A stretch of DNA of 36,750 nucleotides from a virus. Shown here piece after piece: positions 10,312 through 36,750 of this stretch; position 1 is the stretch's first letter; each line of letters opens with the position of its first letter. The translations under genes were made by a program, and so were the position numbers. The stretch lies in the IMG/VR virus record IMGVR_UViG_3300009506_000108, positions 1-36,750 of that record; one strand, 5' to 3'. Below the pieces are notes generated by a model. It saw only the letters and a program-made list of their open reading frames with translations, had not been told where the DNA came from and made no database searches.

Positions 10312-11835
10312 TTATCCCCATTGTATCTGCATTTCTTGAACTGCAAATGTGAATCGCTCTGGAGCTGCTGCGAGCATTAAAGCTTCAGCTTTATTAGGTG
10401 ATGGAATAGTTTTTCCATTTGCATCTTTTCTTTTATCTGCAATCTTTAATTTACCATTACTACGACGTTCATAACGAATAGATAATAATTCAGCCGCTAA
10501 ATCATCATCATCTGAATCAATATCAATCAACCCACGTTCAAATAAATCTCGGACATTCCACCACAACTCAGCTTTTAAGTTCAAAAATCTTTCATCAGAA
10601 GATTGATCATCTTCTGTAGCTCCTTCACCAACATTAATCCCTATAAAGGGTTTACCAAGCTCCATACCACGATTAACAACACCCCATCCAATCCCAATCT
10701 TATCAATCTTTACACATGAAGCTTTCGTAATCCTTAAATCTTCGATTATTTTACCACACTGAGACATTGTGTCTGGATCATTATCAGAACGAATAATCCT
10801 AAACACATACCCACGTCGTTGACATACTTCTGAATTATCACCACCAGCGCCAATATCAGCACCTAACTCATTTGGCCCATCTTTTATAGTAGAAGATAAA
10901 TCACGTAATTGAGCGCCTTTAATCCACGAAATAGGAATAAGCCCATTTTCTGTAGTTTTCTCAGGAAATTCTCCTAAAATCTTTGACATCCATAAAGGAT
11001 TAACATTTCGATCATTTTTAGCATCTATACCTTCTGGTGGAACACAAGCACCGCCATCAGGAGTCCATCTCCAATGAGGAGCCCATTTTCTACGCTTTTC
11101 TTCTACATACACCTTTCCAATAAGTTGTTTTGCAACAGTTTTTGGAATATCTTCCCCTGTAAAATTAGGGCTCTCAAAAGCAGATATATGAATTACTTTC
11201 CAACCAGATCCAGGTTTAGATGCTTCGTAAAATTCACCTTCTGGGTCATCAGGGTTACCAATCATTACAATTTTAGAATCATCATTTGCAATTAAAGATT
11301 CTGCAGCTTCATGTAACGGTCCTCGAACACCATTAGCTTCATCAATTAACATTAATACACGAGGTGCATGGATACCCTGAAACGCTGCCGGATCGTAATC
11401 GTCAGGTTTACGACCAAAAGCTACTAATTCTTCTTTCCCATTAACCGTCATGTACCATTCAGTCTGGTTTACACGACCAGCTAACCGCCCTCGCATAAAA
11501 GCTCGACCAATCTCTTTCCACAAAATAGCCTTAATCTGTGGATTCGAGGGAGCAGTAGTGACTACAAAGGCAGAACCAGCGGGCCAAGCGTCTAACCACC
11601 ATGCTGCGATACGTCCAGCAAGCCACGATTTTCCAACTTCGTGACATGAAACAATAGCAACACGACGATAAGCTTCAACAGCGCGAAGAATTTCCTTCTG
11701 TTTAGACCACACAAACTCCTTCAAACGCTCTTCAACCCACTGTTCAGGTCGTTCCTGCCAGTTACGACGTTGTAGTTCCGCTTCAATAGCCGCTAAAGCA
11801 GCTATCGGATCGGCAACTTGGAGTTCAGAGCTCAT
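10312..11835 (-). CDS. terL: Terminase large subunit
   Basis: 507 aa. The ATPase domain shows Walker A 'CHEVGKSW' (about residues 64-71), Walker B 'LMLIDEA' (161-167) and a coupling motif 'IVMIGNPDDPEGEF' (about 193-206). The RNase H-like nuclease begins 'LGADIGAGGDNSEV' near residue 328, with a second acidic segment 'SCVKIDKIGIGWG' and a late acidic cluster 'DIDSDDDD'. The ATG overlaps the stop of the upstream gene (ATGA). It pumps and cuts DNA during packaging. It is unusually far (about 7 kb) from the likely small subunit, with tail-fibre genes between them. Confidence 0.93.
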   Translation of the reverse strand: MSSELQVADPIAALAAIEAELQRRNWQERPEQWVEERLKEFVWSKQKEILRAVEAYRRVAIVSCHEVGKSWLAGRIAAWWLDAWPAGSAFVVTTAPSNPQIKAILWKEIGRAFMRGRLAGRVNQTEWYMTVNGKEELVAFGRKPDDYDPAAFQGIHAPRVLMLIDEANGVRGPLHEAAESLIANDDSKIVMIGNPDDPEGEFYEASKPGSGWKVIHISAFESPNFTGEDIPKTVAKQLIGKVYVEEKRRKWAPHWRWTPDGGACVPPEGIDAKNDRNVNPLWMSKILGEFPEKTTENGLIPISWIKGAQLRDLSSTIKDGPNELGADIGAGGDNSEVCQRRGYVFRIIRSDNDPDTMSQCGKIIEDLRITKASCVKIDKIGIGWGVVNRGMELGKPFIGINVGEGATEDDQSSDERFLNLKAELWWNVRDLFERGLIDIDSDDDDLAAELLSIRYERRSNGKLKIADKRKDANGKTIPSPNKAEALMLAAAPERFTFAVQEMQIQWG

Positions 11836-12178: not shown

Positions 12179-15067
12179 CTATTCCTCGAATATAACGGTT
12201 CGAATAGGTTCATCAACCGTTACTGTGTAAACAAATTCTGTGAAACTTAAACTGTAATTCTTTTCTGTGTACTCAACAGTTGTGTGATTAATATTTTCAG
12301 GTAAAGCCCCAAAGATTAACACAAATCCAAGAATACCGTCACTCTGAACACCTGTTAAGCCTACAGTTCCATCATTAGTCTTACCAACAGAACCAACAGC
12401 TGAGAGAGCTCCGATTCCTACTAAGGTTAAAGAACGTGGAGCCGCAATTGAGCCTAAACTTACGACTACTTCGCTACCATTTAATATATGCCCGCGTGTA
12501 ACAAATAGATTATCAATATCACCGACTATTTCAACTCCGGAAATTTGCTTAATTCGATCGATTAATACTGAGCCAGTGGCGCTGGTTACTTCTTGACCAG
12601 TAAGTTCAAATTCTCGTAAAAATCCTACTGATCCAATAGCACTAGTTGTTCCAACTCCTGTAAGCCCTAGTGTTTGATCAGCACTTGGGGAAACAGTTCC
12701 GACTGCTGTAGCAGCTGAAACACCTGAAAGGCTTGCGCTCCCTTCTGCACTAGCTCCAACCGACCCTGTAGCAGCAGTTCCTTGAACACCTGTAATAGCA
12801 ACTATTCTAGAAGTAGTTACTGATTCAATAGCAGAAGCGGCTTCTATCCCTGTAGCAGCTTTATTAGTCGAGGGTGTAACTGAACCCTCTGCGGAAGTAG
12901 CTTCTACTCCAGTTAAAGCATCTTGGACATCAGCCCCAGCACTAACTGATCCAACAGCACTAGTAGCCCCATCCCCTGATAATGATTTAGAAGTGGATGG
13001 AGAAAGTGTTCCTATTCCGATAGTAGATTCAATTCCTGTTAAAGCAACCTGAACATCAGCACCGGCACTAACATTTCCTTCAGCACTAGTGGCTTCACTA
13101 CCTGTAAGAGCTTTTGAAGTCGCTACTCCTAAATCATCAACTGCGCTAGTTACTTCAATCCCCGTTAGAGCTTCCTGAACATCTGCTCCAGCAGTTACAT
13201 CCCCTACAGCACTAGTCGCGCCAGTTCCGGTTACAGCTTTAGAAATAGATGGTATTACACTTCCAACAGCACTAGCTCCAGAAACTCCAGTTAAGGTGGC
13301 ACCTCCGGGGACAACCACCCCAACTGAACCGATTGCACTAGTTCCTTGAACCCCTATTATATCAATATTAGTGTCAGGTGTTACATCATCAACTGCTGAA
13401 GCAGCTACAAACCCACTTATATCCTGAGAAATTCCAGGAGTAGAAGATTCAACCGCACTTGTTCCTTGGACACCACTAACAGCCCTCAAAATAGAAGGTG
13501 TTAAGGCCCCAACTCCACTAGTTCCTTGTACTCCTGTTAATGGTTGAGTTAATCCTGGAACAGAAACTGTTCCAACTGCGGTGGTAGCTGCTTCACCTGT
13601 AAGTATTTTAGATGTAGATGGCGCTACATCATCTACAGCACTAGTGCCTTCTTCACCAGAAAGTGGTTTGGATGTGGATACTCCAACATCTCCTATCGCA
13701 CTAGTTCCTTCAACTCCAGTTAAAGCAGCTTGAACATCAGCACCGGCACTAATCGAACCAACCGCACTAGTAGTTTCTTCACCGGTAATAGCTTTAGTAA
13801 TTGATGGAGCTACATCATCTACAGCACTAGTAGTTGCTTCTCCTGTAAGAGCTTTAGATATTGATTGTATTACATCATCTACAGCACTAGTAGCTTCCTC
13901 TCCAGAAATAGCTTTAGAAATCGAAGGAGTAACTGTTCCAACACCAGTTGTTCCAACAACACCGTGTAAAGCAGTTCCTAAATGAGAAGCAATAGCTTCA
14001 ACACCGGTAACCCAAACTGTAGTTGATGGATCTACAGCTTCTATCGCACTAGTTCCAGCAACTCCTGTTAAAGTTTCTTCAACATCCGCGCTAGCACCAA
14101 CTGAACCGACTGCACTAGTGCCTTCTTCACCTGTAATAGCTTTCGAAATTGATAAAGTTATATCTTCAATCGCACTTGTAGCTTCAACACCTGTAATGGC
14201 AACAGAAATTATAGAGGTAATCGATTCAATAGCACTTGTTGAACCTATTCCTGTAAGAGCTTCTTCAGCTCCACCTTCAACAGTTACACTTTCAACGGCA
14301 CTGGTCGCTACTTCTCCAGTAATAGGTACAGTAATCGAGTGGGTAACACTCTCAATAGCTGAAGTTGCTACTTCTCCAGAGATTGCTTTCGAAACACCGA
14401 CTGAAGCAATATCTTGAATTGCTGCTGTAGCTGCTACTCCAGTTAATGCAACAGCGACCGCTACTCCAAGAATTCCCCGTGCTGAGGTTCCAAGTACCGT
14501 TGTCAGAGGTTCAGACACTGATCCAGGAGTATACTGGACCGTAACAACAACCCAATCTTGTCGGAGTGAGACTACAGCTGACCCACTATTACCTGTACGT
14601 GGAGATCCTGTTAATCGTAACCGAATTGACGTATTTGACGCATCCGTCAATCCGGTAATAGCAGTTCCAGATTGTGTAGCCCAACTAGTTGTTGATGAAA
14701 ATGCTTGTGCAGACGAAAATGTCCCGCGTAATACTCCAGTTCCATCACGAAGATCAGCTGGCCCAGATTCGTTACTGGTACCAGTGTCCCATTCTGCACA
14801 CTTCCAATCGTAATTTAGATTGACTTCAGTAACAGTCGCGCCCGCCGGGACATTCAGATCCTCCCACGTCCCTGCCCACTCCCAATACGATCCGGCCGAG
14901 TTGTCGTTCTTCCCGGCCGAGCGCATCTGCATGACACCAGTGCCAGCGTTGGTGTCATTCGGGCTATCCTCGGTGGTATCTCGAGTCCCAGCGGCGGATC
15001 CAGAGGGTGTGAACGCCCAACTCTCTAAAGTGGAATTAAACGAGAAAGAGCGAGAGGCTTCAGCCAC
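12179..15067 (-). CDS. Long repeat-rich tail fibre / receptor-binding protein
   Basis: About 962 aa. I take the GTG at 15067 because it has GAGGAGG upstream; a TTG at 15085 is the alternative. Residues 1-190 look like a beta-sandwich with Trp-rich strands (SWAFTPSGSA, WEWAGTWEDLNVPAG). After 'LTTVLGTSARG' there follow about 35 tandem units of 20-22 residues of the form LTGvxaTSAvgsVxpSisK. They end with a unique C-terminus 'NHTTVEYTEKNYSLSF'. The late repeats are more degenerate. Such repeats form extended beta fibres. The neighbouring 417-aa product ends in the same 'LTTxLGTSAxG' junction. Unequal crossing-over between units may vary fibre length. Confidence 0.7.
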   Translation of the reverse strand: MAEASRSFSFNSTLESWAFTPSGSAAGTRDTTEDSPNDTNAGTGVMQMRSAGKNDNSAGSYWEWAGTWEDLNVPAGATVTEVNLNYDWKCAEWDTGTSNESGPADLRDGTGVLRGTFSSAQAFSSTTSWATQSGTAITGLTDASNTSIRLRLTGSPRTGNSGSAVVSLRQDWVVVTVQYTPGSVSEPLTTVLGTSARGILGVAVAVALTGVAATAAIQDIASVGVSKAISGEVATSAIESVTHSITVPITGEVATSAVESVTVEGGAEEALTGIGSTSAIESITSIISVAITGVEATSAIEDITLSISKAITGEEGTSAVGSVGASADVEETLTGVAGTSAIEAVDPSTTVWVTGVEAIASHLGTALHGVVGTTGVGTVTPSISKAISGEEATSAVDDVIQSISKALTGEATTSAVDDVAPSITKAITGEETTSAVGSISAGADVQAALTGVEGTSAIGDVGVSTSKPLSGEEGTSAVDDVAPSTSKILTGEAATTAVGTVSVPGLTQPLTGVQGTSGVGALTPSILRAVSGVQGTSAVESSTPGISQDISGFVAASAVDDVTPDTNIDIIGVQGTSAIGSVGVVVPGGATLTGVSGASAVGSVIPSISKAVTGTGATSAVGDVTAGADVQEALTGIEVTSAVDDLGVATSKALTGSEATSAEGNVSAGADVQVALTGIESTIGIGTLSPSTSKSLSGDGATSAVGSVSAGADVQDALTGVEATSAEGSVTPSTNKAATGIEAASAIESVTTSRIVAITGVQGTAATGSVGASAEGSASLSGVSAATAVGTVSPSADQTLGLTGVGTTSAIGSVGFLREFELTGQEVTSATGSVLIDRIKQISGVEIVGDIDNLFVTRGHILNGSEVVVSLGSIAAPRSLTLVGIGALSAVGSVGKTNDGTVGLTGVQSDGILGFVLIFGALPENINHTTVEYTEKNYSLSFTEFVYTVTVDEPIRTVIFEE

Positions 15068-18685: not shown

Positions 18686-19087
18686 CTAATTAACCGAGTT
18701 TCCCATCGGCACAACTACCGGACCACCCGGCTTGGCCGACTTACGAAGTGCTTCCGCAATGTAAGAAGCTCTCTCCGCCAGCTCTTCGCGGGACAGCTCC
18801 GACAAATCCATGATATTCGCATTCACGTCCACAGTACTCTTCGGTCCAAACCCGGTTCTATCGAGGACAATCTGAGCGGCTTTGATGGCGTTGTTAAAAT
18901 CGGCGTGGAGCATCGCATCGTACAGCGTTTCGAGGGACGCTTCCACCATATCGTGGAGTTTTAATTGCCCTTCTCGAAATTCAGACGGTGAAATGGATTC
19001 ACGATGTTTGCTTCGGGAACGCCGATGCTTCTTACCCTCAGCCTGTGGGGTGGGAGTTTCTAAGTCGTCGTAAACGCTTTGGGCCAT
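18686..19087 (-). CDS. Possible terminase small subunit, 133 aa
   Basis: First gene of the late operon. The basic N-terminus (KKHRRSRSKHRES) is followed by helices, then 'NAIKAAQIVLDRTGFGPKST' and 'DLSELSREELAERASYI'. The LDRxGxGP segment followed by a short acidic helix is common at the C-terminal part of phage small terminase proteins. No helix-turn-helix is obvious. There is no clear ribosome site before the ATG. The small subunit recognises the packaging site, and the anomalous island lies directly upstream. Moderate confidence only. Confidence 0.5.
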   Translation of the reverse strand: MAQSVYDDLETPTPQAEGKKHRRSRSKHRESISPSEFREGQLKLHDMVEASLETLYDAMLHADFNNAIKAAQIVLDRTGFGPKSTVDVNANIMDLSELSREELAERASYIAEALRKSAKPGGPVVVPMGNSVN

Positions 19088-19167: not shown

Positions 19168-19310
19168 GCCTATAAAAGAGGTACGGCGGGGAGTTTTAAA
19201 CGATTTGTTTGAGGAGGGACGTGAAAATTTGGAGGGAGAGTTTTTAGAAGAGGTTGGCGGATCACATCTGGCGGGTGGCGAACATCGGCACCGTGTAAAT
19301 TTTACTTTGA
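19168..19310. other. Purine-rich spacer before the GA/TC-free island
   Basis: This stretch is crowded with GAG, GAA and GGA on the plus strand and ends with the last GA before the island (19309-19310). A short plus-strand frame passes through it and into the island but lacks a ribosome site. I see no gene here. Confidence 0.5.
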
Positions 19311-19320
19311 GGGGGTGGGG

Positions 19321-19336
19321 TGGCACGCGGTTTGCA
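19321..19336 (+). promoter_or_regulatory. Sigma-54-like -24/-12 motif 1
   Basis: TGGCACGCGGTTTGCA matches the YTGGCACG-N4-TTGCW consensus, with GG and GC separated by exactly 10 bases. It lies just inside the left edge of the island. No plus-strand gene follows closely, so it could instead be a protein-binding repeat. Confidence 0.4.
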
Positions 19337-19345
19337 TACGGTGGC

Positions 19346-19363
19346 TTGGCACGGTTTATGCTT
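19346..19363 (+). promoter_or_regulatory. Sigma-54-like -24/-12 motif 2
   Basis: TTGGCACGGTTTATGCTT keeps GG-N10-GC, with one mismatch in the -12 element. It is 25 bp after motif 1, in the same orientation. Confidence 0.35.
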
Positions 19364-19370
19364 ACACTGT

Positions 19371-19410
19371 GGGTAAGGTTGGGTTAGGTTGGGTATAGGT
19401 TGGGCTGGCG
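19371..19410 (+). repeat. Telomere-like G-rich repeats
   Basis: GGTTGGG and GGTTAGGTTGGG units repeat with small changes, giving seven G-runs within 40 bp. The strand could form a two-layer G-quadruplex. The same GTTAGGTTGG word recurs after the plus-strand promoters at 20658 and 33363. Confidence 0.55.
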
Positions 19411-19510
19411 GTATATGGCGGGTTAGCCTAGCCTGTAGGTTACCCCGTAAACGTGCTAGGCTGGCGCGTAACAGGTAAACGGCGGGCGGGCCATACTACC
19501 CTATGCGGGC

Positions 19511-19547
19511 AAACAAAAAGGGCCTGTAGGCAAAGCCTACAGGCCCT
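19511..19547 (-). terminator. Strong intrinsic terminator after the island ORF
   Basis: On the minus strand a perfect 12-bp stem (GGGCCTGTAGGC with GCCTACAGGCCC, 3-nt loop) is followed by TTTTTGTTT. It begins 22 bp after the stop codon of the island ORF. This is the strongest sign that the ORF is transcribed. Confidence 0.85.
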
Positions 19548-19569
19548 TGCGGGCGGGCTGGCGGGTTAC

Positions 19570-20232
19570 TTACCCAACCTTACTAGCATGGCCCTTACTG
19601 GCGGGCTGGCTGGCTTTGCGGGTTGCCGCCGCAACCTTACCAGCCGCAACCTTACCAGCAGTGGCGGCAACCTGCGCCGGGGTTGCCACGGGGTTACCGG
19701 TAGCATTGGCAACCCCAACATTACCAGCCGCAACCTTAGCACTAGTAACCCCGGCGGCCGGCTTAACGGCGGGTTGCGCCAGCGTAACCCCGGTAACCGC
19801 AAGGTACGCGGGCGGGTTGCCGCCAGTAAACCAGCTAGCGGCAACCTGTAGGGTGCCCGTTACCCCAGGCACGTGGTAATTGTACCGCCCGCAGGCGGCG
19901 GTACTAAGGTACGTAAGGGCATTGGCTGGCGGGTTGCTGGCGCATGGGGTAACCGTTATGCTGGCGGGCCAAGTAACCACGGGCGGGTTACCGGCGGGTT
20001 GCACTAGGTTACCGTTTACAAAGGCAATGCCTTTGCAACCTGCTACCCCGTAGCTAGCATACTGGGTAGCATTGCGGGTATGCACCCTGCGGTACTGCCA
20101 TTGCTGGCTTGTGGGCTGGCTGGCGGGCTGGCTGGCGGGCTGGCTGGCGTTTGTAGTGTTACCCAATGTAAACCTACCTTGCTTGTGGTAACCCGGTATT
20201 GGGCTAGCACGCCATAACCCATAGCAACCCAT
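19570..20232 (-). CDS. Island ORF: 220-aa protein without any Asp or Glu
   Basis: The ATG at 20232 opens 220 codons; a TTG at 20262 would add ten. Because GA never occurs, no Asp or Glu codon is possible and the product is very basic. An Ala/Ser/Gln/Pro repeat (ASQPASQPASQPTS) lies near residue 30. A mixed middle part follows (GIAFVNGNLVQPAG, TACGRYNYHVPGV), then a Lys/Ala/Val-rich tail (AGKVAAGKVAAATRKA) like nucleic-acid-coating proteins. An intrinsic terminator follows. Upstream is GTTTAAAACCGTGG, the spacer text of other phage promoters, but without TTGCAATC. No Shine-Dalgarno is possible, since GGAG contains GA. Lack of TGA stops also lengthens chance ORFs, so coding is uncertain. Confidence 0.45.
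   Translation of the reverse strand: MGCYGLWRASPIPGYHKQGRFTLGNTTNASQPASQPASQPTSQQWQYRRVHTRNATQYASYGVAGCKGIAFVNGNLVQPAGNPPVVTWPASITVTPCASNPPANALTYLSTAACGRYNYHVPGVTGTLQVAASWFTGGNPPAYLAVTGVTLAQPAVKPAAGVTSAKVAAGNVGVANATGNPVATPAQVAATAGKVAAGKVAAATRKASQPASKGHASKVG
20113..20148 (+). repeat. Three perfect copies of a 12-bp tandem repeat
   Basis: GGGCTGGCTGGC occurs three times head to tail. Read on the minus strand it encodes the repeated Ala-Ser-Gln-Pro units of the island ORF. It is a likely slippage hotspot. Confidence 0.8.
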
Positions 20233-20452
20233 ATGCCACGGTTTTAAACCCCAAAACCCCAATACCGCAAACCATATGCCACATTTTTATACGGGTTTTT
20301 GTATTACCATATTGTAGCAAACGCGCTAACCCGTTTGTTTACAATGGTTTATAGCAAACCAAACTTTTGGTTGGCCCTACGGCTTTTTGGTTTTAGGGCA
20401 AACGCCCGCCGTTTGCAGGTTGTATGCAAACGCCATGCCGTCGCGCGCGACC

Positions 20453-20545
20453 AAAGTTGGCACGGGATTTGCGAGCGACGCCGTACCAGTAGGATCCATC
20501 CAAGGACCCCGAGCTCACAGCCGATCCCTCCAAATTTCATCCTCC
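20453..20545 (+). repeat. Intergenic repeat R, copy 1
   Basis: Shares with 21336-21431 an ordered series of blocks: GTTGGCAC, CCGTACCARTAG, AAGGACCCCGAGCTCAC and TTTCATCCTC. A more diverged relative lies at 26188-26263. Confidence 0.7.
20457..20473 (+). promoter_or_regulatory. Sigma-54-like motif 3, within repeat R copy 1
   Basis: TTGGCACGGGATTTGCG has exact GG-N10-GC spacing. CCGTGCCA on the minus strand and TGGTACGG nearby also make an imperfect inverted repeat, so an operator is the alternative reading. Confidence 0.4.
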
Positions 20546-20657
20546 ATCAGCTGATCCATCCATCATCCCGATATCCCCGAGAGTGACAGACGGACAGATC
20601 TATCCGTCACGCGATGGACGGACGGACGTCCATGCGATATCGCGGCGATCATCCAGT

Positions 20658-20686
20658 TTGTGGTCAACTAACGTGCATGGTATACT
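20658..20686 (+). promoter_or_regulatory. Promoter for the 134-aa plus-strand gene
   Basis: TTGTGG, 17-bp spacer ending CATGG, TATACT. The predicted start of transcription leaves a leader of about 33 nt before the GTG start codon. Confidence 0.65.
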
Positions 20687-21559: not shown

Positions 21560-21982
21560 CTACGACTGGGTCGCAGCCTCAGCCTTCGCCCGCGCCGCCG
21601 CCAGCTGCGCCTCGGCCTTCGCAGCCTTCTCCGCCGCCTTGCGCTGCGCGGCCTCCATCCGCTCCTGCGCCTTGCGCGCCTTTTCCTCGGCGCGCTTGGC
21701 GATGGCCTCCGCCCGCTCCTTCGCCTTGTCAGCCTTGGGCGCGACCATCTCGCAGGAGAGCGTGATCTCCTGCGGTGGCACGCCACCGGCGAACAACGTG
21801 TTGAAGAAGACCACGTTGCCGGGGTGACCGGGGATGGTGAAGCTGGACCGGTTCGACGGGTGGTCGGCGCGGTGCAGCTTGATGGTGTAGTTCGGCCCCG
21901 CCTGCGGAGCCTCGGTCTCGGCGACGGCCGGCGTAGCAGCCGCCGTCTCCTCAACCACGGTGCCCTTGGTCTTGTTACTCAT
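21560..21982 (-). CDS. Beta-domain plus Ala/Lys/Glu coiled-coil protein, 140 aa
   Basis: AGAGGTG precedes the ATG. Residues 30-80 hold a small beta domain ('YTIKLHRADHPSNRSSF', 'IPGHPGNVVFF', 'PPQEITLSCEMVAPKAD'). Residues 85-140 are an almost pure Ala/Lys/Glu/Arg helix (KAKERAEAIAKRAEEKARKA). The protein at 35893-36294 has the same plan with alignable blocks (GxPGxVxF, PPQxxxL, PxAD), so the two are paralogues on opposite strands. It is transcribed from the promoter at 22052-22080. A DNA- or membrane-associated structural role is possible but unproven. Confidence 0.75.
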   Translation of the reverse strand: MSNKTKGTVVEETAAATPAVAETEAPQAGPNYTIKLHRADHPSNRSSFTIPGHPGNVVFFNTLFAGGVPPQEITLSCEMVAPKADKAKERAEAIAKRAEEKARKAQERMEAAQRKAAEKAAKAEAQLAAARAKAEAATQS

Positions 21983-23234: not shown

Positions 23235-23489
23235 CTAACCCTCCAACTTTTCCAGTGTTGAGTAATCGTACTTCTGTCCACAGCCGGTGCCAAGACCAGA
23301 TCCGTGGTGGCGGTGACAAGTGGGGCACATGATGGCCCAGTAACCGAGGCGGGTGCGGCCGTCGATAAAGACGGTAGTGAGGGGCGTGTGACAAATGTCA
23401 CATTTGTCCGGTGTGCTGCCCATCCAATACTTCTTGGGCTTCTGCTTCAAATTGCTCAGTTGCGGCGCTTGGGTTAGGCGGCTCATCAT
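23235..23489 (-). CDS. HNH-like zinc finger phage protein, 84 aa
   Basis: AAGGAG precedes ATGATG. CDICH (residues 30-34) and CPTCH (55-59) plus 'RHHGSGLGTGCGQKYDY' give a zinc site with extra His. The text 'FIDGRTRLGYWAIMCPTCH' matches a small phage protein type that I have seen repeatedly without assigned function. It lacks the full HNH catalytic set, so nuclease activity should not be assumed. Confidence 0.7.
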   Translation of the reverse strand: MMSRLTQAPQLSNLKQKPKKYWMGSTPDKCDICHTPLTTVFIDGRTRLGYWAIMCPTCHRHHGSGLGTGCGQKYDYSTLEKLEG

Positions 23490-23813
23490 TCACTCCTTCT
23501 CCATAAGGGTAATGGCGCGTAGCGGAACCTCTGGGTGGTGCTTAAGCAGATACGTTATAGCAGCCGCATCATCTTCAACCGGTATGTGCAGCACCACCAC
23601 TTTCCCTCCTTTCTTGTAAATCACCTTGTAACCTTTATTACTGCCCGGCAACGCCCCTTGAGCTTTCTGCTCTTCGTATAGTTTTACGATTTGTCTATAC
23701 TGAGCAGCCTGATTGTGATCAGTGACTAATCGCCAAAAGATGCCAACCACCGCCACAAGGAACGCTATAATGCCGACCAGAAAGACAGCTACCAAAAACG
23801 CGGCCGTAACCAT
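23490..23813 (-). CDS. Membrane-anchored small protein, 107 aa, apparently leaderless
   Basis: The ATG at 23813 lies six bases after a perfect TATAAT, i.e. exactly at the expected transcription start, with no Shine-Dalgarno. No other Met occurs in the first half, so this start is firm. Residues 2-28 form one hydrophobic segment (TAAFLVAVFLVGIIAFLVAV). The rest is cytoplasmic or periplasmic: 'QIVKLYEEQKAQGAL', 'YKVIYKKGGKVVVLHIPVED'. The topology cannot be fixed. First gene of its cassette. Confidence 0.75.
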   Translation of the reverse strand: MVTAAFLVAVFLVGIIAFLVAVVGIFWRLVTDHNQAAQYRQIVKLYEEQKAQGALPGSNKGYKVIYKKGGKVVVLHIPVEDDAAAITYLLKHHPEVPLRAITLMEKE

Positions 23814-23819
23814 AGAACT

Positions 23820-23848
23820 ATTATACCACGGTTTTAAACTGATTGCAA
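23820..23848 (-). promoter_or_regulatory. Promoter giving a leaderless mRNA
   Basis: TTGCAATC, 17-bp spacer with GTTTAAAACCGTGG, TATAAT, then AGTTCT and the ATG. The seventh base after the -10 box is the A of ATG. Confidence 0.85.
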
Positions 23849-23912
23849 GCTCTTTCTGCGTCGGCCGATCATCTAGTGTGCAAGGTCGTGCCGATATCGC
23901 CGAGACTGCCAA

Positions 23913-23934
23913 AGATGGGTCCGTAGACCCATCT
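23913..23934 (-). terminator. Terminator of the 23.9-25.0 kb cassette
   Basis: AGATGGGTC-TACG-GACCCATCT on the minus strand, then TTGG. It begins a few bases after the stop at 23941. The stem is good but the T-run short. Confidence 0.6.
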
Positions 23935-23940
23935 ACCTCC

Positions 23941-24351
23941 CTAGATTACTCCCCGACGCCGATACTCATCCCGTCGCTTCTTGTCACACATGCGCCGGAA
24001 CTCGAGCTGCTCAGCATGGGTACGGCCGATAGTCTGCAAACCGCCGCCGCGTGCCCAGTGTTCGCGCCAGCGTTTGGCGGTTGACTCTCGAGTACGCCGC
24101 ATCAAATCGAGAGGGCTGAGGTGGTGCGGCCTGAATTCGAAGTTCGGCCCAGGATAAACCCACGGCCAGCCGTTGTAGAGGCGATTGACCGCGTAAAGCG
24201 CCCGCCCAAGCGGATACGAGAGGTTGAGCTTGCGCGCTATGGTGTAGAGCTCAACGACACGCATATTGAGCTGACGGCTATCCACTTCGCACTTGCGAAA
24301 TGGCGGCATAGGACCGAAAAGAATGTCGTAGCTGTCAGATTCGTCGGACAT
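23941..24351 (-). CDS. Hypothetical basic protein, 136 aa
   Basis: I choose MSDESDSYDILFG at 24351 (GGGGAG eight bases upstream, overlapping the previous gene by 17 bp) over the longer frame. Residues 28-60 look helical ('NMRVVELYTIARKLNLSYPL'). The C-terminal third is rich in Arg (TRESTAKRWREHWARGGG, RRMCDKKRRDEYRRRGVI), suggesting nucleic-acid contact. Last gene of a five-gene cassette. No family recognised. Confidence 0.65.
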   Translation of the reverse strand: MSDESDSYDILFGPMPPFRKCEVDSRQLNMRVVELYTIARKLNLSYPLGRALYAVNRLYNGWPWVYPGPNFEFRPHHLSPLDLMRRTRESTAKRWREHWARGGGLQTIGRTHAEQLEFRRMCDKKRRDEYRRRGVI

Positions 24352-24580
24352 CAGTCGGCTCCCCTGGGACTGCGACCCAGTTCGTTTTGCGCCACGTTTC
24401 CATCTGTTTGAGTTGGTTGACAACTTCCATAGCGGACAGGAAGTCGGTAAAGGTGCGGGCATTGGCCCGCACCTCCGTCGCCATGCCGCTGGCTGTGAGA
24501 TAGATCAACTGCGGTGGCTTGCCGTAACGGGTAAGCTCCGTCGCAGCAACCACCCACTCGCGTGGGGTTATTCCATCCAT
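24335..24580 (-). CDS. Hypothetical protein, 81 aa
   Basis: Starts MDGITPREWVVAATELTRYG. The ATG overlaps the upstream gene by 13 bp and has only a weak ribosome site, consistent with coupled translation. The middle is helical (TFTDFLSAMEVVNQLKQMET). The composition is that of a soluble protein. No family recognised. Confidence 0.6.
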   Translation of the reverse strand: MDGITPREWVVAATELTRYGKPPQLIYLTASGMATEVRANARTFTDFLSAMEVVNQLKQMETWRKTNWVAVPGEPTDVRRI

Positions 24581-24759
24581 CGCGGCACCAGCAGCACATC
24601 GATGTTACCGTGAACATCCACCGCAAGCTCCACTCGGTCAATGTTACGGACGGTCGGTGTAAGCTCCGTCTGCACCTTAACCATTACGGCGGGGCGATTG
24701 TGGGCGTCGAGCAACCGCTTTGAGGTTGCCAGCTTTTCGATCAACGTGCTGAGCTCCAT
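24568..24759 (-). CDS. Hypothetical protein, 63 aa
   Basis: GGGGG precedes the ATG. The product begins MELSTLIEKLATSKRLLDAH and has a beta-like second half (VELAVDVHGNIDVLLVPRW). Its predicted helix-then-strand layout is common in small phage regulatory proteins, but no family is recognised. It overlaps a possible 55-aa gene in another frame. Confidence 0.6.
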   Translation of the reverse strand: MELSTLIEKLATSKRLLDAHNRPAVMVKVQTELTPTVRNIDRVELAVDVHGNIDVLLVPRWME

Positions 24760-24844
24760 TGTTTACCCCCTGTGATGCTAAGAACTTCATTGCATCGGCT
24801 AACCGCTTGTTCGCCAGTAACCAACCGCGTGGGTCGGGGCGCAT
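24677..24844 (-). CDS. Possible small gene, 55 aa
   Basis: The ATG overlaps the previous stop as TAATG, a typical coupled start, and the first 28 codons (MRPDPRGWLLANKRLADAMK and on) fill an otherwise empty 82-bp gap. The last half lies out of frame over the 63-aa gene and looks like shadow text. It may be real with a long overlap. Confidence 0.45.
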   Translation of the reverse strand: MRPDPRGWLLANKRLADAMKFLASQGVNNGAQHVDRKAGNLKAVARRPQSPRRNG

Positions 24845-26509: not shown

Positions 26510-26850
26510 TGTAATATTTGTAATACGGAATTTGTTCGGCGGGCTGGTCGCCAATTTCGAGGTGTAATATTGACTGCCATTTGTAATATGTGAAATATTA
26601 CAGAGTTAAAAACGGTCAAGTTGTTGCAAACAAAGGTTGTTACCCGAGATGTAATATTTGTAATATGTAATATCATTATATTATAGGTTATAGGTAAATA
26701 CCGTGAATTTAAACTTATACATATAGCATACATAGGCAACTGTTGAAGTGCCTTTTTGGTATTACACCATATTACAAGGGTTAACCCCTTTGTTTACAAT
26801 AGGTTAGCCGTAATATTGTTGTAATATTCAAATATTACAATATTACATCC
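26510..26850. repeat. Cluster of GTAATAT / ATATTAC boxes
   Basis: About a dozen copies in both orientations, often as TGTAATATTTGTAATA pairs or AATATTACAATATTACA at the right end (26830-26848). The half-sites make TGTAATATTACA-like palindromes. The region is AT-rich within a GC-richer neighbourhood. Typical of operator clusters or initiator-protein iterons. Confidence 0.75.
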
Positions 26851-33031: not shown

Positions 33032-33118
33032 GCCACTGTGGTGGAACTGGCAGACACGACAGACTTAAAATCTGTTGACCGAAAGGTCGTGCGGGTTCGA
33101 TTCCCGCCGGTGGCACCA
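33032..33118 (+). tRNA. tRNA-Leu(UAA)
   Basis: The 7-bp acceptor stem GCCACTG/CGGTGGC, D arm, anticodon loop CTTAAAA (anticodon TAA), long class-II variable arm, T arm GCGGGTTCGATTCCCGC and encoded CCA are all seen. Length and long variable arm fit leucine. Confidence 0.95.
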
Positions 33119-33617: not shown

Positions 33618-34943
33618 ATGCGTACCAATATTCGTGTGGTCAATTCAACTTTGAAAACCCATGAGGGTGCTCCAGCTGCCCACCTCACTCCTTTGAAGGA
33701 ACTCCGTAGGTCAGTACTTACGGCGCTTCTCTGGGAAAACCTCTTTTACGAGGGTGGTAAGGAACACGCGCAGCGTGTTCAGGACCTCGTAGCCCGCTGC
33801 AAGCCAGAGGATGTAGCTAATCTGGCTATCGAAGCCCGCGACTTGATGTATCTGCGTCATGTCCCGCTGTTCCTGGTTCGTCAGTTGGCGCGTATTAAGG
33901 GTAATGGTACGCTCGTGGCGTCGACGCTGGCGAATGTCATTCGTCGTCCAGATGAGCTTACCGAATATCTGGCAATGTATTGGGAGGGTGGTACGACGCG
34001 GCCCCGTCCGGAGCCTTTGTCGGCTGGCTCGAAGCGTGGGCTTGCCCGCGCCTTCAAGAAGTTCTCAGCCTACAGTCTGGCCAAGTACGATCGCGATACT
34101 GGGGTGAAGTTGCGCGACGTTCTCCGAATGGTTCACGCCAAGCCAACGGATGGCGAGGAATCGGCATTGTGGAAGCAGGTATTGGATCGTAGCTTGCCGA
34201 CTCCTGATACTTGGGAGGTCGCCCTCTCGGGCGGCGCGGATAAGCGCGAAGTGTTCGAGAGGCTCTTAGCTGAAAAGAAGCTCGGAGCACTCGCGTTTCT
34301 GCGAAACTTGCGTAACATGATCGAAGCCAAGGTGGACCCTGCTCTGATTCGAGAGCGGTTTGCCGGAAAGCTCGATCAGGTGTTGCCGTTTCGGTTCATC
34401 GCCGCAGTTCGTCATGCACCTGCATTCGCACAGGACTTGAATGACGCAATGTTGCGGGCAGTCGCAGATTACCCACGTCTGCCAGGACAGACGATTGTCT
34501 TAGTCGATGTTTCTGGGTCGATGACTTGTCAGTTGTCTGAAAAGTCAGATATGAATCGTATGGATGCGGCGGCTGGTCTGGCAGTTCTCATTCGTGAGAT
34601 TGCTCAGGATTGCCGTATCTTCACGTTCTCGCAGGACGTTGTTGAAGCACCTGCCTATCGTGGATTGGCATTGGTGGATGGGATCATCACGTCTCAGCCT
34701 TATGGTGGCACCTATCTTGGAGAGGCTGTGCGACGAATTCAGGCGCGGTATCCGCATGATCGGTTGATTGTGGTGACTGATGAACAGTCCCACGATGTGG
34801 TGCCGAATCCAAATAGGACTGGATATATGATCAATGTGGCACCTTACCAGCATGGTGTCGGTTATGGACCTTGGGTTCATATTGATGGTTGGTCTGAGCG
34901 CGTGATGGACTTCATTCGGGAATTGGAGGCAGAAGAGAACTAG
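33618..34943 (+). CDS. Ro60 (TROVE domain + vWA) RNA-binding protein
   Basis: 441 aa, with GGAG seven bases before the ATG. Residues 1-285 form the helical-repeat TROVE-type ring (e.g. 'DLMYLRHVPLFLVRQLARI', 'FLRNLRNMIEAKVD', 'VLPFRFIAAVRHAPAF'). Residues 292-441 are a von Willebrand A domain with an intact metal site: 'DVSGS' (297-301), Thr365 in 'GGTYLG', Asp388 in 'VVTDEQ'. Ro60 proteins bind misfolded RNAs in the central hole and Y RNAs on the outside. Bacterial forms act with exonucleases in RNA quality control. The three structured RNAs around this gene are candidate Y RNA partners. Confidence 0.9.
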   Translation: MRTNIRVVNSTLKTHEGAPAAHLTPLKELRRSVLTALLWENLFYEGGKEHAQRVQDLVARCKPEDVANLAIEARDLMYLRHVPLFLVRQLARIKGNGTLVASTLANVIRRPDELTEYLAMYWEGGTTRPRPEPLSAGSKRGLARAFKKFSAYSLAKYDRDTGVKLRDVLRMVHAKPTDGEESALWKQVLDRSLPTPDTWEVALSGGADKREVFERLLAEKKLGALAFLRNLRNMIEAKVDPALIRERFAGKLDQVLPFRFIAAVRHAPAFAQDLNDAMLRAVADYPRLPGQTIVLVDVSGSMTCQLSEKSDMNRMDAAAGLAVLIREIAQDCRIFTFSQDVVEAPAYRGLALVDGIITSQPYGGTYLGEAVRRIQARYPHDRLIVVTDEQSHDVVPNPNRTGYMINVAPYQHGVGYGPWVHIDGWSERVMDFIRELEAEEN

Positions 34944-35789: not shown

Positions 35790-35817
35790 AATTCTTGTGG
35801 TGGATTGCTTTTGTCCT

Positions 35818-35846
35818 TGCAATTCGCTAGTTTTTGTGGTAGGATG
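35818..35846 (+). promoter_or_regulatory. Promoter for the 133-aa coiled-coil gene
   Basis: TTGCAATT, 17-bp spacer ending GTGG, TAGGAT. The leader is about 40 nt. Confidence 0.65.
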
Positions 35847-35892
35847 GTTACCGTTACGTGGCGGTAACTCGTTAACCTTTGCAGGAGAAGTT

Positions 35893-36294
35893 ATGGCTCT
35901 TCGGACTCTTCAGTTCAACCGCATCCACAAGAACGGCTGGCTCTCGTGGAAGCTCGTCGGTGTCCCCGGTGCAGTCTTCATCGATAAGCGAATGCTCGAT
36001 GAGGAGACCCTCGCCAATCCCCCGCAGACTCTTGAGCTGGATGTCCCCGGAATGAAGGAGCCGGGTGCTGACGCTACGGCACAGGCCGAGGCGAAGGCGA
36101 AGGCCAAGGCGGAGCGCGATGCTAAGAAGGCAGAGCGCGCTGCGGCTCAGGCTGCCAAGGCTCAGGAGCGACTCCAGAAGCTCCAGGAGAAGGCTGCTGC
36201 GGCACAGGCTAAGGCTGATGCTGTCGCTGCGAAGGCGGCTGCGGCGGTCAGTGGGCAGAGTGCTGAGGGTTCTGCTGACTCCCCGGATATGTAA
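35893..36294 (+). CDS. Beta-domain plus Ala/Lys/Glu coiled-coil protein, 133 aa
   Basis: AGGAG precedes the ATG; the longer frame is rejected. Residues 1-55 form a small beta domain ('LQFNRIHKNGWLSWKL', 'GVPGAVFIDKRMLDEE', 'PPQTLELDVPGMKEPGAD'). Residues 60-120 are Ala/Lys/Glu helix (AKAKAERDAKKAERAAAQAA). Same architecture and conserved blocks as the 21560-21982 product. Codon third positions are strongly GC-rich compared with the neighbouring genes, as expected for a highly expressed gene. Function unknown. Confidence 0.75.
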   Translation: MALRTLQFNRIHKNGWLSWKLVGVPGAVFIDKRMLDEETLANPPQTLELDVPGMKEPGADATAQAEAKAKAKAERDAKKAERAAAQAAKAQERLQKLQEKAAAAQAKADAVAAKAAAAVSGQSAEGSADSPDM

Positions 36295-36300
36295 ATTCTA

Positions 36301-36389
36301 GTAACGGCTCTGTCCGCGGCACGGCCGTTATGAGGTGACCAGGCACCGAAATTGGGAGCCGGCCTGGATTTCGGCTCCCGGTCTCCCTC
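36301..36389 (+). promoter_or_regulatory. Structured leader with the ribosome site held away from the start codon
   Basis: Hairpin 1: TAACGGC (36302-36308) with GCCGTTA (36324-36330). Then GAGGTGA (36332-36338), a hairpin closed by GACC/GGTC (36337-36340 with 36380-36383) with inner GGGAGCCG/CGGCTCCC, then TCCCTC and the ATG. No ribosome site lies next to the ATG. Folding would bring GAGG near it, or GAGG could pair with CCTC and block it. Confidence 0.5.
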
Positions 36390-36707
36390 ATGACAACTTT
36401 AACTTCGGGAAAACAGTGGATAGCCCATTGTGGAAAAGGGGCGCGTCTGCGTTACCTGAAGCAACGCTGTAATCCTATCATCCGCAGTAAAGACCCGCAA
36501 ATTCAATCCGCCCTCGCCAGAGTAAGACAATCCCTCGAACAACATCCAGAAAAAGACTTTGGTCTTTTGTGGGTTGTATCAAAAGCCTTATCTATTATCG
36601 ATGATACAGGGGTAGGTGCGGATTTCGCTCTCAATTATCTAATGGATCAGTGGGATGCTGATCAAACACTTAAGGTGAAATTACCAGTCGCTAAAGGTGC
36701 AGCATGA
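36390..36707 (+). CDS. Hypothetical protein, 105 aa
   Basis: Starts MTTLTSGKQWIAHCGKGARL directly after the structured leader, without a nearby Shine-Dalgarno. Middle: 'KDPQIQSALARVRQSLEQHP' and 'DFGLLWVVSKALSIIDDTG', likely helical, ending 'LKVKLPVAKGAA'. Its stop overlaps the next ATG (ATGA). No family recognised. Confidence 0.65.
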   Translation: MTTLTSGKQWIAHCGKGARLRYLKQRCNPIIRSKDPQIQSALARVRQSLEQHPEKDFGLLWVVSKALSIIDDTGVGADFALNYLMDQWDADQTLKVKLPVAKGAA

Positions 36708-36750
36708 AATGTGATATCTGCCGTGGTGCTTGTTGCGAAAGCCTCAATTT
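36704..36750 (+). CDS. Cysteine-rich protein, N-terminus only
   Basis: Runs off the window. It begins MKCDICRGACCESLN, with four Cys in ten residues. The CxxCxGxCC pattern is common at the start of small phage proteins and of YkgJ-like zinc/iron cluster proteins. AAGGTG precedes the ATG. Only 15 residues are visible. Confidence 0.6.
   Translation, partial: MKCDICRGACCESLN

What the first reader, a model, noticed from the sequence alone, without database searches (positions are those of the whole stretch)
19311..20440. A 1,130-bp island in which GA and TC never occur
Seen directly: there is no GA and no TC on either strand from 19311 to 20440, while AG and CT are frequent. The flanks are rich in GA/TC and the borders are single-base sharp. 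By rough composition about 60-70 of each would be expected, so chance is excluded. The rule covers coding, promoter-like and terminator DNA, so it acts at the DNA (or both-strand RNA) level, not on protein. Inference: protection from or avoidance of something specific for GpA. Base modification in GA context is known in phage (as I recall, a 7-deazaguanine in GA and GGC context in phage CAjan), and a nuclease or toxin with GA specificity is another idea. The place, directly upstream of the possible small terminase, is also where packaging sites lie.
Basis: partly seen in the sequence, partly recalled or inferred. Interest (0 to 1): 0.95.

Follow-up and report, generated by a model that had tools for sequence, protein, structure and literature searches.

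The report
Gene free of DNA-modification target sites
A soil phage and its relatives each keep one small gene unit completely free of a single two-base step (GA/TC here, CA/TG in cousins), most likely so that this unit carries none of the bulky base modifications on the rest of their DNA and the host can read it at once.

Summary
It is not unique. In 165 terminase-region contigs (2.69 Mb), extreme dinucleotide-depleted blocks are very rare, and the strongest cluster about 1-8 kb upstream of terL. GA/TC-poor blocks occur in relatives G005 and G010. In a second clade, one CA/TG-free unit per genome recurs in at least eight phages. There the free stretch starts near the promoter and ends at or soon after the terminator; most remaining TGs are forced by the code, and two genes lack any NTG start. 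Two homologous units separated by 202 substitutions hold 3-8 CA/TG where 57 would arise: strong purifying selection. TC and TG are the thymidine-hypermodification contexts reported for phages M6, ViI and phiW-14. Relatives G001, G010 and G024 encode 5-hmdU DNA kinase; the window ends just before the syntenic module. Phosphorylated 5-hmU templates are poorly transcribed by E. coli RNA polymerase (PMC6457204). Best explanation: a modification-free transcription unit readable by host polymerase on modified virion DNA. Rule and conservation are shown; mechanism is inferred.

The parts
19311..20440 (.). GA/TC-free island (1,130 bp), 57.8% G+C in a 49% G+C record
19570..20262 (-). island gene: 230-aa ORF with no Asp or Glu, Ser only from AGY, basic Ala/Lys-rich C-terminus; no Pfam, PHROG or structure assignment. 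A canonical Shine-Dalgarno core (GGAG) is impossible in GA-free DNA; the start (TTG at 20262 or ATG at 20232) is uncertain
   Evidence: weak similarity of its C-terminal half to the 21560-21982 family
19518..19548 (-). intrinsic terminator of the island gene (14-bp stem, 3-nt loop, T-rich tail), about 20 bp after the stop codon
   Evidence: sub-threshold Rfam hit BjrC68 over 19511-19589
20311..20370 (.). promoter-like region of the island; shares AACCC[CG]TTTGTTTACAAT with 26783-26798
   Evidence: consensus resemblance only
26621..26830 (.). second GA/TC-poor stretch (5 found, 21.5 expected in 26621-26820), noncoding, with the same promoter-like element
19214..19237 (+). left arm of an imperfect inverted repeat flanking the island, GA-rich (GAGGGACGTGAAAATTTGGAGGGA)
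20525..20548 (+). right arm of the flanking inverted repeat, TC-rich (TCCCTCCAAATTTCATCCTCCATC)
18686..19087 (-). probable terminase small subunit, next gene downstream of the island
   Evidence: weak PHROG 2538 hit; 45-51% identical homologs directly upstream of, or within about 1.1 kb of, terL in G005, G006, G001
10312..11835 (-). terminase large subunit, used to find relatives
21560..21982 (-). 140-aa gene on the far side of the island, homologous to the gene that flanks the GA-poor block in G005
35797..36750 (+). right end of the record, syntenic with G001 1.0-3.9 kb, just before G001's polymerase / 5-hmdU kinase / glycosyltransferase / thymidylate synthase module

Best explanation
The island is a transcription unit (promoter region, small gene, terminator) kept free of the target dinucleotide of the phage's own sequence-specific DNA hypermodification. 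In this clade the target is most likely T in TC (TC/GA), in the sister clade T in TG (TG/CA). Elsewhere the genome is densely modified, which protects it from nucleases but hinders host RNA polymerase. The island stays chemically plain on the incoming virion DNA, so host polymerase can transcribe it at once. Each modified base would impair the template, so new sites are strongly selected against. Shown: the rule, its position, its fit to a transcription unit in the CA/TG clade, purifying selection, kinase genes in close relatives. Inferred: that this phage carries the kinase, that TC is modified, that transcription by host polymerase is the selected function.
For: (1) Same place in the genome: GA/TC-poor blocks in G005 (15 seen, 60.6 expected per 400 bp) and G010 (23 vs 63.7), each the strongest GA depletion of its genome. 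(2) Sister clade: CA/TG-free units in L176, L166, L168, L189, L172, L111/G016 (two genomes), L225, L227, holding 1-5 CA/TG in 600-840 bp where 72-100 are expected in the five with a computed expectation. (3) The free stretch covers the promoter side, gene and terminator; in L176 and L227 the first TG comes right after the terminator's T-run. Most leftover TGs are ATG/GTG starts or Trp TGG; L189 and L166 appear to start at ATA and ATC. (4) 202 substitutions between the two G016 islands should create 57 CA/TG (minimum 39 in 2000 simulations); 3 and 8 are seen. (5) 5-hmdU DNA kinase (PF18723) in G001 (closest relative with a long contig), G010 and G024, with thymidylate synthase-like, HD-nucleotidase and glycosyltransferase genes in G010 and apparently G001; the G001 kinase is 43-46% identical to those of M6-like phages. 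The window and G005 end before the syntenic module. (6) Resistant sites in M6, ViI and phiW-14 DNA point to TG or TC as the modified context, and kinase-treated SP8 DNA resists cleavage at TG/TC sites (PMC6449724; PMC7653180). (7) Kinase-phosphorylated 5-hmU template gives 37% of the transcription of plain DNA, and bulkier groups none, with E. coli RNA polymerase (PMC6457204). (8) In M6-like isolates Ab18, PaMx11 and Epa5 the strongest TG+TC depletion lies just upstream of the same gene cluster.
Against: No kinase is seen in the window itself (a fragment) or in G005 (whose contig ends before the module). The CA/TG clade has no PF18723 hit; its candidates, Thy1 and a flavoprotein, are only correlated with the island. 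G024 has the kinase but no detected GA/TC island. M6 context is TG and TC together, whereas each island avoids only one. In the window the GA-free stretch runs about 200 bp past the terminator, so the fit to one transcription unit is looser than in the CA/TG clade. Modification, expression time and host are unknown.
Confidence: 0.6

Rival explanations
1. The island avoids a 7-deazaguanine (or other purine) modification in GA, as in Queuovirinae; same logic, different chemistry and enzyme (DpdA).
For: In CAjan and Iggy the most GA-poor window lies in what looks like the same gene.
Against: No TGT/DpdA family hit in the window or 13 relatives; CAjan and Iggy have no island; the relatives encode thymidine-modification genes; it does not explain CA/TG islands.
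Confidence: 0.12
2. A dinucleotide-specific nuclease (phage, host or rival) cuts at GA/TC (CA/TG in the sister clade) and the unit must survive intact; the dense flanks would be cut close to its borders.
For: Near-zero tolerance inside, dense sites in the flanks.
Against: The rest of each genome is full of the sites; the free stretch ends at or soon after terminators; no such nuclease was identified.
Confidence: 0.1
3. A protein that binds the dinucleotide-rich flanking arrays and spreads along DNA must be kept off this gene.
For: Arrays with opposite TG/CA strand bias on the two sides, including repeats with TTGAGTTG.
Against: A single binding site should be tolerable, yet start codons and Trp residues are affected.
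Confidence: 0.08
4. Mutation or low-complexity growth: a deaminase-like process or slippage removed the dinucleotide without selection.
For: The island has repeated words; DddA-like deaminases prefer TC (own knowledge).
Against: No excess of the product dinucleotides beyond a maximum-entropy fit; islands are G+C-rich; homologous islands diverged by 202 substitutions stay nearly free.
Confidence: 0.03
5. Assembly or sequencing artefact.
For: None found.
Against: Independent contigs from many metagenomes show the same rule at the same place; L224 and L226 agree at 12,351 of 12,363 positions and L039 equals L040.
Confidence: 0.02

Closest known systems
Thymidine hypermodification systems (5-hmdU DNA kinase pathway; phages M6, ViI, phiW-14)
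   Same: Target contexts TG/TC; kinase, thymidylate synthase-like, HD-nucleotidase and glycosyltransferase genes in close relatives of the window; strongest TG+TC depletion upstream of one gene cluster in M6-like isolates
   Different: No full-length modification-free gene is seen in the M6-like isolates examined; the window fragment itself does not contain the kinase; the CA/TG clade lacks PF18723
Queuovirinae 7-deazaguanine DNA modification (CAjan, Iggy)
   Same: GA is the modified motif, so GA avoidance would have the same meaning
   Different: No DpdA in the related genomes and no island in CAjan or Iggy
Restriction-site and CRISPR-PAM avoidance in phage genomes
   Same: Counter-selection of a short DNA word
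   Different: Those act genome-wide on longer words; here avoidance is near-absolute, of a dinucleotide, and confined to one unit

Membership tests
Thymidine hypermodification phage (5-hmdU kinase pathway) | Encodes 5-hmdU DNA kinase (PF18723) | tested here: inconclusive
   Absent from the 36.75-kb window, which ends before the syntenic module; present in G001, G010, G024
Thymidine hypermodification phage (5-hmdU kinase pathway) | Modified T in TG/TC context in virion DNA | not testable with these tools
   Needs virion DNA; context reported for M6, ViI, phiW-14 (PMC6449724)
Thymidine hypermodification phage (5-hmdU kinase pathway) | dUMP hydroxymethylase (thymidylate synthase-like gene) | tested here: inconclusive
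   Pfam hit in G010, apparent homolog in G001; that part of the window's genome is missing
Queuovirinae GA modification | DpdA transglycosylase (TGT fold) | tested here: not met
   PF01702: 0 of 14 related records; the window is a fragment
Queuovirinae GA modification | GA-free island in known members | tested here: not met
   Longest gaps 81 (CAjan) and 171 (Iggy), first 50 kb of each
Genome-wide site avoidance (restriction or CRISPR escape) | Depletion across the genome | tested here: not met
   GA/TC odds near 1 outside the island
Low-complexity or tandem-repeat DNA | Few words, repetitive | tested here: not met
   All 48 permitted trinucleotides occur; other dinucleotides near maximum entropy

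The most novel reading that the evidence does not exclude
Hypermodified phages keep one protein-coding transcription unit chemically unmodified by purging the modification enzyme's two-base target from promoter to terminator, even giving up Asp/Glu, His/Gln/Cys or standard start codons, so that host polymerase can start the infection programme; the purged dinucleotide reads out the specificity of an unknown modification enzyme directly from sequence.
Probability: 0.55. Interest if true: 0.95.

Novelty: categorically new. Interest (0 to 1): 0.92.

Why it matters
It would show how a phage with bulky modified DNA solves the problem of being read by the host at the start of infection. It would let modification specificity be inferred from metagenome sequence alone, point to new modification enzymes (for example the Thy1/flavoprotein pair that tracks with CA/TG islands), and provide genes that appear to be translated from ATA and ATC starts. 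The effect is strong and directly testable.

Tried and rejected
Close relatives of the island gene by protein search: none in viral contigs, nor in the phage records. DNA similarity of 18-25 kb to phage records: none. TerL in bacterial genomes: three distant hits with A5, none with A3. DpdA/TGT in relatives: none. CAjan and Iggy as carriers of a GA island: no. Deaminase-type mutation: rejected by maximum-entropy fits. Rfam: no family for the island above threshold. AlphaFold of the window's island protein failed (pLDDT 33); the CA/TG-clade protein gives a confident helical model (pLDDT 82.7) without a PDB match at E <= 0.001. The PNAS 2018 and NAR 2022 thymidine papers and the two NAR deazaguanine papers are not in the held library; they were not used as evidence. 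Literature searches gave no report of dinucleotide-free islands.

Full report
What is there. The window is a 36,750-bp virus record, classed as linear and cut inside the tape-measure gene. GA/TC is absent for 1,132 steps; the next longest gap is 83. Shuffled island sequence holds 137 GA+TC on average and never fewer than 106. The island holds one minus-strand ORF of 230 codons followed about 20 bp later by a strong intrinsic terminator. It lies between a 140-aa gene (21560-21982) with a homolog in G005 and the probable small terminase. The ORF has no Asp or Glu. Since the Shine-Dalgarno core contains GA, the unit cannot have a canonical one, so translation of the ORF is plausible but not proven.

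Not a mutation bias. If GA/TC had been converted in one direction (for example TC to TT) the products would be in excess. With GA and TC forbidden and the base composition fixed, the other dinucleotides lie within 0.88-1.2 of a maximum-entropy expectation. The CA/TG islands likewise show no TA excess (0.47-0.94).

Relatives of the window. Terminase searches gave 165 contigs or genomes, 2.69 Mb. Only 29 events (400-bp windows) reach ln P < -12 for any dinucleotide, and the strongest lie upstream of terminase genes. G005 (TerL 70% identical) has a GA/TC-poor block at 23280-24780, between the homologs of the same two genes that flank the island here. G010 (TerL about 56%) has a GA/TC-poor block just upstream of terS. 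In both, GA is the strongest local depletion, but incomplete (about 0.4-0.5 of expectation), so the window is the extreme case. G001 and G006, the closest relatives by TerL, end 0.2-0.5 kb upstream of terS, so their island region is not in the contigs.

A second clade with a different word. Phages with TerL about 38-41% identical carry one CA/TG-free block per genome: L176, L166, L168, L189 (= L226 with 12 differences), L172, L225, L227, and two genomes joined in G016 (L111). They hold 1-5 CA/TG in 600-840 bp where 72-100 are expected. The free stretch begins just after an upstream hairpin, covers a TACGCT-like promoter element in several of them, the gene and its terminator, and ends 0-40 nt beyond in the cases read by eye. 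Seven of these genes form one protein family (A7), with 31-54% identity to the first row; it has no His, Gln or Cys and no internal Met (read from the sequences). Most remaining TGs are ATG/GTG starts and a conserved Trp TGG, which two members replace by Leu. L189 and L166 have no NTG codon at the start and appear to begin at ATA and ATC after purine-rich ribosome-binding sequences.

Selection. The two G016 islands share 77% of aligned positions. Applying the same 202 substitutions at random would create 57 CA/TG (minimum 39 of 2000 simulations); the compared parts hold 3 and 8.

What the forbidden words share. GA/TC and CA/TG contain T followed by C or G. In phages M6, ViI and phiW-14 restriction-resistant sites point to TG or TC as the hypermodified thymidine context, and M6 5-hmdU kinase was reported to act on TG (PMC6449724); kinase-treated SP8 DNA becomes resistant only at TG/TC sites (PMC7653180). 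G010 encodes 5-hmdU DNA kinase (PF18723), a thymidylate synthase-like protein, a TET-associated glycosyltransferase and a YfbR-like protein. Kinase genes are also in G001 and G024. G001's kinase is 43-46% identical to those of M6-like Pseudomonas phages. Synteny places the kinase module about 5 kb beyond the window's right end, and beyond the left end of the G005 contig. So the window's lack of a kinase is uninformative. In the CA/TG clade no PF18723 was found, but Thy1 and a flavoprotein occur together in most island genomes (G012 flavoprotein only, G023 Thy1 only, G014 a short contig with neither) and are missing from seven of eight relatives included as having no island; G029 has Thy1 only. 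PaMx11 also has an annotated FAD-dependent oxidoreductase beside its kinase. This is correlation only.

Why keep a unit free. With E. coli RNA polymerase, phosphorylated 5-hmU template gives 37% of plain DNA and 10% of the 5-hmU template, and bulkier groups none (PMC6457204). An incoming, already modified genome may therefore need a plain unit that the host can read. The fit of the free stretch to a transcription unit, the second GA/TC-poor region of the window at a promoter-like sequence, and the TG+TC-poor region upstream of the same gene cluster in Ab18, PaMx11 and Epa5 agree with this. The last signal is moderate (ln P -8.5 to -10.6), and the three genomes are related, so it counts once.

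Limits. No chemistry, no transcripts, no host. G024 has the kinase without a detected island. The window's free stretch runs about 200 bp past its terminator. Why each clade avoids only one of TC and TG is unexplained; different kinase specificities are the simplest idea.

Verdict. A real, strongly selected and apparently undescribed feature; the best reading is a modification-free transcription unit (0.6). The novelty claim rests on searches of the held open-access library only.

Noticed in passing
L189 5518; L166 6060: Genes of the CA/TG-free family whose conserved reading frames have no NTG start and appear to begin at ATA and ATC.
   Followed up: partly
L063 5845-6440: 595-bp AG/CT-free, largely GG/CC-free block made of CAC/GTG/ACG words upstream of terL; low complexity, a different kind of island.
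   Followed up: partly
G016 (IMGVR_UViG_3300046533_000294): 130-kb contig is a join of two related phages of about 65 kb, meeting at their islands; about 265 bp of noncoding island sequence are 93% identical between them.
   Followed up: partly
L168 5600-6020, L176 4200-4600, L189 5100-5440: Repeat arrays with TTGAGTTG and GGCTTACGC upstream of CA/TG-free islands; downstream flanks CA-rich with hardly any TG.
   Followed up: partly
CAjan (L004) 39051; Iggy (L005) 42651: The most GA-poor window of both GA-modified phages lies in what looks like the same gene, between a nuclease and an AAA/repair gene.
   Followed up: no
L231 1-507, L232 28143-28667, L233 15600-16200: M6-like phages: strongest TG+TC depletion of the genome just upstream of the helicase-led gene cluster; the region has an inverted copy upstream of terS in PaMx11.
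   Followed up: partly
window 33032-33115 and 33618-34943: A tRNA gene next to a TROVE/Ro60-like RNA-binding protein.
   Followed up: no
G005 genome: Pfam hits to major vault protein domains and SPFH/Band 7 proteins in a phage.
   Followed up: no
window 20441-20660: The flank right next to the island is dense in GA/TC words (GATCC, TCCATC).
   Followed up: partly
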